From Aminobacter sp. AP02 (lineage in GTDB: Bacteria > Pseudomonadota > Alphaproteobacteria > Rhizobiales > Rhizobiaceae), in assembly GCF_003148805.1 (NCBI RefSeq), contig NZ_QGGX01000001.1, positions 124,001 to 188,000 of the forward strand: 64,000 bases of DNA. Direction: 5' to 3'. The translations under genes and the position numbers were made by a program. Shown in pieces: positions 29,308 through 40,680 of the stretch. Every line of letters begins with the position of its first letter. Within the stretch, counting starts at the first letter, position 1. Below the pieces are notes generated by a model that was not told where the DNA came from, did no database searches, and saw only the letters and a program-made list of their open reading frames with translations.

Positions 29308-30222
29308 CTAGCGCCGCTTCTTGTGGGCGCGGCGCTCGAGATAGGCCGTTGTCTGCAGCGCGGCGAGGATGACGAGCGCACCGATGACGATGCGCTGGTC
29401 GGGCACTTCGTCGAAGAAGATATAGCCGGCGGCCGTCGTCACGACGATCGAGAGGTAGCCGATGGGAGCGAGGACGCTTGCGTCGGCGAGGCGATAGGCG
29501 CGCAAGAAGCAATATTGCCCGGCCTGCGCTAGAAGCCCGATGCCGAGCAGGGGCACCCAGTCGAACGTCTTGACCGGCTGCCAAACGAAGATGGCTGGCA
29601 CGGCCGTGATTATCGCGAGACCGACGGTGTAGAACACCATCATTACGGTGGTGTTTTCGTCGCGCAGCATGCGCGTCTGGATGATGGCGAGCGAGCCGAA
29701 GACGACAGTGCCAAACACCGCGAGCAGGCCGAGGTTCCATTCGACACCGCCGGGAGCCAGCATCATCAGCACGCCGGCAAAGGCCAAGGCAGCGCCGACC
29801 CAGCGCAGCCGCGATACCGTCTCGCCGAGGAAGGCGACCGCCATGGCCATGGTGACGAGCGGCCTGGAAAAACTCAGCGCGTTGACCACAGCCAGCGGCA
29901 ACAGCGTGTAGGCCATGAACTGGCTGGTCAGCGCAATGGCGTTGCAGCTGATGCGCGAAATGTTCTGCCAGGGATGCTTGGTATGGCGGATGTGGCGGCG
30001 GTGACGCCAGATCAAAGGCAGGATGAACAGCAGGCCGATCATCGCGCGGATGAAGACGAGCTGGAACGCTGGATAGACGAGCCCTTGCGCCTTGACGAGC
30101 GCCGTCATGCCGCCGGAGACCAGCAGCATGTCGGCGAGCACCCAGATCACACCCTCGCGGTTGGCTTTGTGACGCTCGTCCCCCGCCTCGGGCGTCACCG
30201 TGCTGTCAGGCTGGCTGGACAA
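29308..30222 (-). CDS. DMT family (EamA) transporter
   Basis: This 304-residue inner-membrane protein has about ten hydrophobic segments arranged as two EamA repeats (first ending near GVLMMLAPGG, second with YLSIVVTTAAGYIFFDE). The family exports metabolites or amino acids. It overlaps the end of the PIG-L deacetylase gene by 17 bases, so it belongs to the minus-strand ROK/deacetylase operon and may export a product or by-product of that pathway. The C-terminus is strongly basic (ERRAHKKRR). Confidence 0.9.
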   Translation of the reverse strand: MSSQPDSTVTPEAGDERHKANREGVIWVLADMLLVSGGMTALVKAQGLVYPAFQLVFIRAMIGLLFILPLIWRHRRHIRHTKHPWQNISRISCNAIALTSQFMAYTLLPLAVVNALSFSRPLVTMAMAVAFLGETVSRLRWVGAALAFAGVLMMLAPGGVEWNLGLLAVFGTVVFGSLAIIQTRMLRDENTTVMMVFYTVGLAIITAVPAIFVWQPVKTFDWVPLLGIGLLAQAGQYCFLRAYRLADASVLAPIGYLSIVVTTAAGYIFFDEVPDQRIVIGALVILAALQTTAYLERRAHKKRR

Positions 30223-39769: not shown

Positions 39770-40680
39770 CTTCGGGAAATGCCAAGCGTCCGGCGGTGCT
39801 CAGCATCGGGCGGATTTACTGCGACCTCATTTTCACCGGCCTGGCATCCCTGCCTGAGCCAGGACGCGAGGTGTTTGCGCAAGACATGAAGATGGCCGCC
39901 GGTGGCGGCGCGTTCATCGCCGCTGCCCACATGGCCCATGCCGGCCGCCAGGTGGCGCTGGTGGCGCGCCTCGGCACCGACCCCTTGTCGACCGGGATCG
40001 AGCCAGAACTCAGCGCCAGCAACGTCGATCTTCGTTTCGTTGAGCATTCGGCCGCTGCTGGACCGCAGGTCACCGTGGCCAGTGTGATCGGCAACGACCG
40101 CGCGTTCCTGTCGCGGCGCGCCGGAACGGCGCTGCCGACAACACTTGCGGCGGCGCTCGACTGGAGCGAGGCGGGTCATCTGCACATCGCCGAATACGCC
40201 ACGCTGCACGAGATTCCCGATTTGGTGACGCGTGCCAAGGCGAAGGGGCTGACCGTCTCGCTCGATCCAAGCTGGGACGAGACGCTGATCTATGAGTCCG
40301 AACTGCTTGAGCACTGTGTCGGAGTCGATATCTTCCTGCCCAACATGGAAGAGGCCACCGCGATCACGCGTGAGAGCGATCCGATCGCAGCGATCGAGAT
40401 CCTGTCCAAGGCTTTCCCTGTGGTTGCCCTGAAGGCGGGCGGCGAGGGCGCATGGCTGAAGGCCAACGGCCAGTTGCTTCACCGACGGGCGGAAGAAGTT
40501 CCGGTCATAGACACGACAGGTGCAGGCGACGCCTTCAATGCCGGGTTCATCGACGCCTGGCTCAGCGGACAGTCTGAGGAAGCCTGCCTTGCCGCCGGCA
40601 TCACCTATGGCAGCCTTGCCGTACAGGCCGCAGGCGGCTCGGCGATCCTGCGCCAGCCGCTACGCCGCGCCGCAGGCTGA
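39766..40680 (+). CDS. PfkB family carbohydrate kinase
   Basis: This 304-residue cytoplasmic kinase of the ribokinase/PfkB family has the N-terminal substrate motif region (AAGGGAFIAAAHMAHAGRQV) and the C-terminal PfkB signature with catalytic Asp (DTTGAGDAFNAGFI, about residues 245-258). It would phosphorylate the sugar or nucleoside moiety after import. It is the last gene of the operon and is followed by a strong terminator. Confidence 0.92.
   Translation: MTSGNAKRPAVLSIGRIYCDLIFTGLASLPEPGREVFAQDMKMAAGGGAFIAAAHMAHAGRQVALVARLGTDPLSTGIEPELSASNVDLRFVEHSAAAGPQVTVASVIGNDRAFLSRRAGTALPTTLAAALDWSEAGHLHIAEYATLHEIPDLVTRAKAKGLTVSLDPSWDETLIYESELLEHCVGVDIFLPNMEEATAITRESDPIAAIEILSKAFPVVALKAGGEGAWLKANGQLLHRRAEEVPVIDTTGAGDAFNAGFIDAWLSGQSEEACLAAGITYGSLAVQAAGGSAILRQPLRRAAG

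What the first reader, a model, noticed from the sequence alone, without database searches (positions are those of the whole stretch)
29308..40680. Undescribed-looking catabolic locus: sugar ABC transporter with an argininosuccinate-lyase paralogue, PfkB kinase, giant PIG-L deacetylase, ROK regulator and exporter
Two divergent operons share one ROK control region. The import operon contains a lyase that keeps the superfamily catalytic His and Ser but has altered ArgH substrate segments (NDIDHT for NDQVAT, EDFF for EDIH). The other operon contains a three-domain PIG-L enzyme. Seen in sequence: gene order and couplings. Known: PIG-L deacetylates amino sugars, PfkB phosphorylates sugars, ASL-type enzymes split a C-N bond releasing fumarate or a similar acid. 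Inference: the pathway takes up an N-acylated amino sugar or sugar-amino acid conjugate, removes the acyl group, splits it and phosphorylates the sugar.
Basis: partly seen in the sequence, partly recalled or inferred. Interest (0 to 1): 0.7.

Follow-up and report, generated by a model that had tools for sequence, protein, structure and literature searches.

The report
Amino-sugar conjugate catabolism with fumarate lyase
This soil bacterium carries a gene set, shared with several bacterial families, that seems to import a glucosamine-containing compound, strip off its acyl group, split off fumarate with an enzyme mislabelled as an arginine-synthesis enzyme, and feed the glucosamine into sugar metabolism.

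Summary
Nine genes (29308-40680) form two divergent, tightly packed operons: EamA<, PIG-L<, ROK< and SBP>, permease>, permease>, lyase>, UgpC>, PfkB>. Of 120 related loci, 86 hold the eight besides EamA in this order (seven contigs counted twice). A conserved palindrome lies between the operons. The lyase is not biosynthetic ArgH: this genome and 13 of 13 tested carriers have a separate high-scoring ArgH, and the tree splits the groups at 100/100. Fumarate-side residues are kept; the leaving-group side is replaced (N318, D323, E328). In sampled genomes the 800-aa PIG-L occurred only with the lyase (15 of 15, 10 of 10). Some lineages add NagB, NagB-II, NagK or MurQ, so the end product is probably glucosamine-6-phosphate. 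Deinococcus plasmids hold a related operon. Leading mechanism: import of an N-acylglucosaminyl C4-dicarboxylate, deacylation, fumarate elimination, phosphorylation. Best candidate substrate: GlcNAc-malate, GlcN-malate or bacillithiol (inferred, untested). No description appeared in the listings of ten literature searches.

The parts
29308..30222 (-). EamA/DMT-family exporter, last gene of the leftward operon; optional member
   Evidence: Pfam PF00892 E 6e-28; found at its place in 60 of 120 related loci
30206..32611 (-). 801-aa PIG-L (LmbE-like) N-deacylase with helical, beta-sandwich and ThuA-like C-terminal parts; no signal peptide seen by eye
   Evidence: PF02585 E 9e-16; HPDDE at H39-E43 and H160/H163 invariant in 34 rows; model pLDDT 89.1 matching diacetylchitobiose deacetylase, MshB, BshB and ThuA
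32637..33860 (-). ROK-family transcription regulator (NagC/Mlc-like), first gene of the leftward operon
   Evidence: PF00480 E 9e-50; NagC 112.6 and Mlc 108.4 bits, both below their cut-offs
33907..33938 (.). Imperfect palindrome in the shared intergenic region, candidate operator of the ROK regulator (core TAATT-N6-AATTA at 33915-33930)
   Evidence: Exact core in 69 of 107 intergenic regions (35 of 66 non-redundant); the core occurs once in the own genome
34153..35409 (+). SBP_bac_1 periplasmic sugar-binding protein (first in-frame ATG at 34153; a TTG lies at 34141)
   Evidence: PF01547 E 3e-40
35422..36366 (+). Sugar ABC permease 1 (UgpA-like)
   Evidence: PF00528; UgpA 118 bits, below its cut-off
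36363..37214 (+). Sugar ABC permease 2 (UgpE-like)
   Evidence: PF00528; UgpE 137 bits, below its cut-off
37218..38732 (+). Argininosuccinate-lyase-superfamily lyase, not ArgH; proposed fumarate-releasing lyase of an amino-sugar conjugate
   Evidence: PF00206, PF14698; tree; signature HNTPFTDMND; model pLDDT 91.8, nearest structure EDDS lyase
38732..39769 (+). UgpC-type ABC ATPase
   Evidence: NF008653 462 bits, above its cut-off of 432
39766..40680 (+). PfkB-family kinase, proposed glucosamine kinase
   Evidence: PF00294 E 2e-36; a ROK-family gene stands in its place in some relatives

Best explanation
The locus is a catabolic unit for an imported N-acylglucosamine joined to a C4 dicarboxylic acid. 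The CUT1-type ABC transporter imports it. The cytoplasmic PIG-L enzyme removes the N-acyl group (acetyl, or a cysteinyl-type acyl). The lyase, an ASL-fold enzyme that still binds the fumarate half, eliminates fumarate and frees glucosamine. PfkB phosphorylates glucosamine to glucosamine-6-phosphate, which NagB-II (encoded elsewhere in this genome, C7) turns into fructose-6-phosphate and ammonia; fumarate enters the TCA cycle. The ROK regulator controls both operons from one palindrome. Best candidate substrates are GlcNAc-malate, GlcN-malate or bacillithiol, because these are the only known metabolites I can name that give both the PIG-L and the fumarate-lyase step a job (recall). Shown: gene set, conservation, PIG-L/lyase coupling, altered leaving-group side, neighbouring NagB/NagB-II. 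Inferred: every reaction, their order, the substrate. I would put about 0.8 on 'amino-sugar conjugate ending in GlcN-6-P plus fumarate' and about 0.35 on the malyl glycoside.
For: NagB in 5 and NagB-II in 8 of 128 loci, in the operon or within about 4 kb of it, and NagK-like and MurQ-like genes in 12 each; NagB-II is the best NCBIfam match of the SIS protein of L073, 316.6 bits, though below the cut-off of 430. In L036 the lyase shares an operon with a ROK-family gene and NagB only. Four loci with NagB-II straight after PfkB show no PIG-L. PIG-L genomes are a subset of lyase genomes: 15 of 15 in a sample of 151, 10 of 10 in a sample of 385 (the window's genome is in both), 21 of 21 plasmid records with starts 5.8-7.0 kb apart. 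In three genomes of one family PIG-L stays beside the lyase although the transporter next to them is of the oligopeptide type. [quoted passage not shown] Residues kept from ArgH: R113, S114, R115, N116, T161, H162, S283, S284, K289, N291; changed: Y to D323, K to N325, Q to E328, G to N318. Deinococcus lyases, in a similar operon, share EDxFF and HNxPFxDxND (7 of 7) and 27 of 55 diagnostic residues, against 8 of 55 shared with ArgH. The own genome has a NagB-II-like gene beside NagA-, NagK- and MurQ-like genes. None of 14 carriers tested has BshC, so bacillithiol would be a foreign nutrient.
Against: No substrate, product or activity was tested. In BshB, Arg109 matters for GlcNAc-Mal; by motif spacing its place is Q159, invariant here, so the malate contact is not the BshB one. 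The nearest curated PIG-L model is Mca (34.8 bits, far below its cut-off), not BshB. PfkB was not found in 26 of 120 loci and PIG-L not in 16 of 120, a few through contig ends; in G185 the PIG-L match is on another contig than the lyase. This genome has no NagB, and its NagB-II match stays below the model's cut-off. In Deinococcus R113 is Leu and E328 is Gly, so the two phyla may not share one substrate. Plain glucosamine or GlcNAc uptake would need no lyase, so the conjugate is deduced only from the lyase fold. A cysteine-dioxygenase label beside the locus in L136 did not match any Pfam or NCBIfam model, so it is not used as support.
Confidence: 0.55

Rival explanations
1. The substrate is an N-linked conjugate, N-(1,2-dicarboxyethyl)-glucosamine (a Heyns product of aspartate and fructose) or an N-acylated relative. 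The lyase cuts a C-N bond as in ASL and EDDS lyase, giving glucosamine and fumarate.
For: C-N cleavage is the usual chemistry of this branch; the nearest fold is EDDS lyase, which works on N-substituted aspartates (PMC12363623, start of abstract and passages). NagB neighbours fit glucosamine as product. Four loci without PIG-L would need no deacylation.
Against: It gives no role to a PIG-L that in the samples occurred only with the lyase. The EDDS-lyase residues Q159, D290 and Y320 fall on H162, V293 and M324.
Confidence: 0.17
2. The locus degrades another amino-sugar conjugate, such as a cell-wall, glycopeptide or antibiotic fragment, and the lyase acts on a different acidic substituent.
For: MurQ-like and NagK-like genes lie within the fetched loci in 12 cases each; three loci of family f59 stand beside an oligopeptide-type transporter; diacetylchitobiose deacetylase is the top PIG-L structure match.
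Against: The fumarate-side residues are kept in the alphaproteobacterial family, which argues for a C4 dicarboxylate. No further gene appears as a constant member: apart from ORF clusters that by position lie antisense to the locus genes, no other cluster reaches more than 12 of 119 loci (most of these clusters were not identified).
Confidence: 0.2
3. The lyase is a second argininosuccinate lyase or acts on an opine-like amino acid conjugate; the sugar genes are bystanders.
For: TIGR00838 gives 307.5 bits, above its cut-off of 279.5, and 22 of 27 plasmid records name the gene argH or argininosuccinate lyase.
Against: A separate ArgH of 594-628 bits exists in this genome and in 13 of 13 others; the ArgH leaving-group residues are replaced; sugar transporter genes are linked in two phyla.
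Confidence: 0.04
4. The same chemistry runs in the synthetic direction (adding an amine or alcohol to fumarate), making a conjugate exported by EamA.
For: EDDS lyase is used to add amines to fumarate (PMC12363623, start of abstract); EamA is an exporter-type family (role recalled).
Against: A dedicated importer with a kinase and NagB/NagB-II points to catabolism; EamA was not found in half of the loci.
Confidence: 0.04

Closest known systems
Biosynthetic argininosuccinate lyase (ArgH, TIGR00838)
   Same: Same fold and domains; fumarate-side residues and the SSIMPQKxNP loop kept
   Different: Separate side of the tree at 100/100; N318, D323, N325 and E328 replace ArgH G, Y, K and Q; about 40 residues longer; lies in a sugar operon
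EDDS lyase of Chelativorans sp. BNC1 (PDB 6g3d)
   Same: Top structural match at 27% identity, similar length (508 aa), and likewise named argininosuccinate lyase, in its PDB record
   Different: Substrate residues Q159, D290 and Y320 are H162, V293 and M324 here
BshB, Bca, MshB and Mca (LmbE/PIG-L enzymes of bacillithiol and mycothiol)
   Same: PIG-L domain with the zinc motif; they act on N-acylglucosamine glycosides (PMC4101496, passages)
   Different: Window protein is about three times longer, scores far below the cut-offs of the models listed (Mca, MshB, BshB2), has Q159 where BshB has Arg109, and sits in an uptake locus
Nag pathway (NagK, NagA, NagB or NagB-II, NagC)
   Same: ROK regulator, sugar kinase, and a GlcN-6-P deaminase in or near some loci
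   Different: Deacylation seems to come before phosphorylation (PIG-L instead of NagA), and a fumarate lyase is added
Archaeal chitin route with diacetylchitobiose deacetylase (recalled; structure match)
   Same: PIG-L deacylation before further breakdown of a glucosamine unit
   Different: Uses a glucosaminidase (recalled) where this locus has a lyase

Membership tests
Biosynthetic ArgH | Score above the TIGR00838 cut-off | tested here: met
   307.5 bits against 279.5; true ArgH of this genome scores 626.6
Biosynthetic ArgH | Groups with ArgH in a tree | tested here: not met
   25 lyases and 16 ArgH-family rows split by one branch, 100/100
Biosynthetic ArgH | Arginine-side residues Y, Q and K of the segment LPLxYxKDxQEDK (roles recalled) | tested here: not met
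   D323, E328 and T331 in the window lyase; D323 and E328 invariant in 35 rows
Biosynthetic ArgH | Splits argininosuccinate | not testable with these tools
   Needs an assay
EDDS lyase | Substrate-side residues R112, N113, Q159, N288, D290, Y320 | tested here: not met
   R115, N116 and N291 kept; H162, V293 and M324 differ
PIG-L/LmbE superfamily | HxDD + H zinc motif and PIG-L domain | tested here: met
   PF02585 above cut-off; H39, D41, D42 and H163 invariant in 34 rows
BshB (GlcNAc-malate deacetylase) | Score above TIGR04000 or TIGR04001 cut-off | tested here: not met
   BshB2 20.6 bits against 195.25; BshB1 not listed
BshB (GlcNAc-malate deacetylase) | Arg53, Arg109, His110 in the substrate site | tested here: inconclusive
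   R86, Q159 and H160 by motif spacing only, no superposition
Nag-type amino-sugar pathway | GlcN-6-P deaminase linked to the locus | tested here: inconclusive
   Met in 13 of 128 loci, which carry NagB or NagB-II; in the window's genome a NagB-II-like gene is unlinked, on C7
NagC/Mlc regulators | Score above the NagC or Mlc cut-off | tested here: not met
   112.6 of 650 and 108.4 of 530 bits; ROK family itself met

The most novel reading that the evidence does not exclude
The locus is the first catabolic pathway for bacillithiol or its GlcNAc-malate and GlcN-malate core: Gram-negative soil bacteria that make no bacillithiol import it from neighbours, and an ASL-fold lyase breaks the glycoside not by hydrolysis but by eliminating fumarate from the malyl aglycone, a way of cleaving a glycosidic linkage not known to me. 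Deinococcus, from a phylum whose control genomes carry BshC, would hold a convergent or shared version.
Probability: 0.3. Interest if true: 0.82.

Novelty: new variant of a known kind. Interest (0 to 1): 0.62.

Why it matters
Proteins of this family are named argininosuccinate lyase in public records (22 of 27 plasmid records carry argH or that name on the matched gene), so arginine pathways are over-read and a catabolic enzyme is hidden. If the mechanism holds, an amino-sugar pathway with a fumarate-releasing step becomes testable in culturable soil bacteria, and the fate of bacterial thiols such as bacillithiol after cell death, on which the searches made here listed nothing, could be approached with a defined gene set and regulator.

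Tried and rejected
ArgH duplicate: rejected on the tree, the separate ArgH and the changed residues. EDDS lyase proper: rejected on residues. Cysteine release as support for bacillithiol: the gene labelled cysteine dioxygenase in L136 had no Pfam or NCBIfam match, so not used. GH9 gene beside L138: a GH9 with CBM2, treated as unrelated. NadABC beside L132: treated as a separate operon under an NrtR-like regulator. Sigma-70 promoter scan of 33800-34300 and Rfam scan of 29000-41000: nothing found. Three distant ArgH-labelled plasmid lyases (Haladaptatus, Geminicoccaceae, Agrobacterium vitis) lack the HNxPFxDxND signature and were not counted as members; of the 74 plasmid records beyond the 27 members, 33 were listed and 10 were looked at, these three and seven Deinococcus. 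A first tree with three proteins of this genome that matched the ArgH model weakly (named PurB-like by me) was dominated by their long branches and was rebuilt without those three rows. One search was a meaningless trial alignment. One search read several ArgH loci on the wrong strand; those rows were remade. Papers: ten searches listed no description of this locus or of bacillithiol or mycothiol catabolism, but four of them matched 106 to 445 papers of which 10 to 20 were listed. Only passages of PMC4101496 and PMC12363623 were read, the rest were seen as listings. Most subscription papers are not held, so absence from print is not shown.

Full report
WHAT IS THERE. The window lies in contig C1 of a 5.6-Mb genome closest to Aminobacter (96% lyase identity to A. 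anthyllidis, A. ciceronei and A. carboxidus). Leftward: ROK regulator, 801-aa PIG-L protein, EamA exporter. Rightward: binding protein, two permeases, lyase, UgpC ATPase, PfkB kinase. Most neighbouring genes overlap or nearly touch.

CONSERVATION. A scan of genome contigs gave 80 loci (224 stretches encoded a relative, best 80 kept). Members found on the expected strand near the lyase: lyase 120, permeases 115 each, ATPase 114, binding protein 113, ROK 106, PIG-L 104, PfkB 94, EamA 60; all nine in order 52, all but EamA in order 86; 119 of 120 keep the order of what they hold. Some losses are contig ends. The locus is patchy: 16 of 151 genomes of the family sample, 12 of 385 of the class sample, 6 of 398 of the phylum sample, the window's genome counted in each. 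In the plasmid collection the family has a sharp edge: 27 records at 53% identity or more, the next ones listed at 37.5% or less (60 of 101 records listed).

CONTROL REGION. A search for palindromes in the non-redundant ROK-SBP intergenic regions found TAATT-N6-AATTA in 34 of 65 (none in five shuffles); a recount with slightly different redundancy filtering gave 35 of 66, and 69 of all 107. The extended site in the window is 33907-33938. Of the 31 non-redundant regions without the exact core, 15 score above 15 bits with the derived matrix, while one shuffle of each of the 66 regions gave at most -14.7; the other 16 score 5.6 or less and do not clearly have the site, though several show a TTAACTCAA-type palindrome by eye. 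The core occurs once in the own genome. The matrix was made from the same loci, so it is a description, not an independent test. No sigma-70 consensus was found there. One ROK operator serving both operons is therefore likely, not proven.

THE LYASE. It passes the ArgH model cut-off (307.5 of 279.5 bits) but the same genome has an ArgH at 626.6 bits, and 13 of 13 further carriers have one at 594-628 bits. In a tree of 25 lyases and 16 ArgH-family rows the two are separated by one branch with 100/100 support, in 100% of 200 bootstrap trees. The closest curated model is PRK06705 at 334 bits, far below its own cut-off of 883. Residues of the fumarate side are the same in both groups; 50 columns that are 90% conserved within each group differ between them, four of these being gaps in ArgH. 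Among them is the segment HNTPFTDMNDSEGE, where the ArgH Tyr, Lys and Gln are replaced by Asp323, Asn325 and Glu328. That swaps an arginine-carrying site for an acidic, polar one, which suits a cationic polyhydroxylated amine such as glucosamine (inference; residue roles recalled). The model (pLDDT 91.8) matches EDDS lyase best (E 2.9e-26) and ArgH structures next. Three of the six EDDS-lyase substrate residues listed in PMC12363623 differ.

THE PIG-L PARTNER. The model (pLDDT 89.1) joins a PIG-L domain like diacetylchitobiose deacetylase, MshB and BshB to beta-sandwich parts and a ThuA-like domain. At E 1e-60 this protein is found in 15 of 151 family genomes and 10 of 385 class genomes, and every one of these has the lyase at E 1e-100 or 1e-80; G046, G376 and G381 have the lyase alone. 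The hypergeometric values 9e-20 and 4e-18 do not correct for shared ancestry. In G185 the PIG-L match is on another contig. In plasmids, 21 of 21 PIG-L records hold the lyase, with starts 5.8-7.0 kb apart; six of 27 lyase records have no PIG-L. In L142, L143 and L145 (one family) lyase and PIG-L stand back to back beside oligopeptide-type transporter genes, so the pair looks like the functional heart. [quoted passage not shown]

THE END PRODUCT. In 128 loci (120 plus L216 and seven Deinococcus loci) NagB lies in 5 and NagB-II in 8. The arrangements differ: lyase, ROK-family gene, NagB (L036); ROK-family gene then NagB after the ATPase (L138); ROK-family gene in the PfkB place with NagB behind PIG-L (L141, L216); ROK-family gene then NagB-II (L133); PfkB then NagB-II in four loci without PIG-L (L051, L069, L070, L073). 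L154 and L150 also have NagA- and NagK-like genes, and ten Rhizobiaceae loci have NagK- and MurQ-like genes some 7-10 kb beyond the lyase. This genome lacks NagB but has a NagB-II match (300 bits, below the cut-off of 430) beside what read as NagA, a NagK-type kinase and MurQ (these three were named by recall from sequence and used as queries). Different deaminases in different lineages point to glucosamine-6-phosphate, although 115 of the 128 fetched loci show neither.

ANOTHER PHYLUM. All seven Deinococcus plasmid relatives (32.5-37.5% identity) have the lyase followed, directly or after a large protein, by a binding protein and two permeases; no ATPase gene stands in these operons. Four of seven also have a ROK gene, a small PIG-L and a carbohydrate kinase; three of these four have in addition a large PIG-L with NEW3 and CBM9 domains. 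The small PIG-L of L212 matches MshB at 146.9 bits and Mca at 114.7, both below cut-off, and at E 1e-30 in the plasmid collection it occurs in 4 records, all of them these. The seven lyases carry EDxFF and the HNxPFxDxND signature and 27 of 55 diagnostic residues, 8 of 55 of ArgH; but R113 is Leu and E328 is Gly in them.

MECHANISM. Shown: gene set, order, co-occurrence, residue changes, neighbours. Inferred: import; N-deacylation in the cytoplasm; elimination of fumarate; phosphorylation; deamination. GlcNAc-malate, GlcN-malate and bacillithiol are the compounds I can name that give a PIG-L enzyme and a fumarate lyase both a job; BshB and Bca act on such compounds. None of 14 carriers tested has BshC, so these would be foreign nutrients. 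Against this: the BshB arginine contact is not kept by motif spacing (Q159), and no assay exists. The N-linked (Heyns-type) rival keeps the usual C-N chemistry but leaves PIG-L without a task.

NOVELTY. The listings of ten searches of the held library showed no account of the locus or of bacillithiol catabolism; four of these lists were capped. All parts belong to known families, and the general plan is an amino-sugar pathway, so I file it as a new variant of a known kind with an enzyme activity that appears undescribed.

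Noticed in passing
L207:8769-11252 (own genome, contig C5): A second, 47%-identical PIG-L protein with a twin-arginine-like start (TRRLFIA, by eye), not next to genes similar to those of the locus; also in G143 and G078. It may be a periplasmic version.
   Followed up: partly
L190:6339-11295 (own genome, contig C7): NagA-like, NagB-II, GntR-type regulator, NagK-type kinase and MurQ-like genes next to another sugar ABC transporter (names other than NagB-II by recall): looks like an ordinary GlcNAc/MurNAc locus.
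   Followed up: partly
L046: A contig titled Bacillus subtilis strain SK6B4 carries the Pseudochrobactrum-type locus at 84% lyase identity; probably a mislabelled or contaminated assembly.
   Followed up: no
L213, L214, L215 and L183: Further ArgH-labelled lyases, two of them beside ABC transporter genes and one near MFS transporters (Geminicoccaceae, Agrobacterium vitis, Haladaptatus), and an extra paralogue in G871, without the signature of this family: more hidden ASL-like lyases.
   Followed up: partly
L132:7178-8026: In Terrarubrum an MBL-fold hydrolase lies beside the permease genes and no PIG-L or ROK relative was found nearby; a possible replacement deacylase.
   Followed up: no
L136:1333-1986: A gene labelled cysteine dioxygenase family lies behind EamA in Roseinatronobacter; no Pfam or NCBIfam match.
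   Followed up: partly
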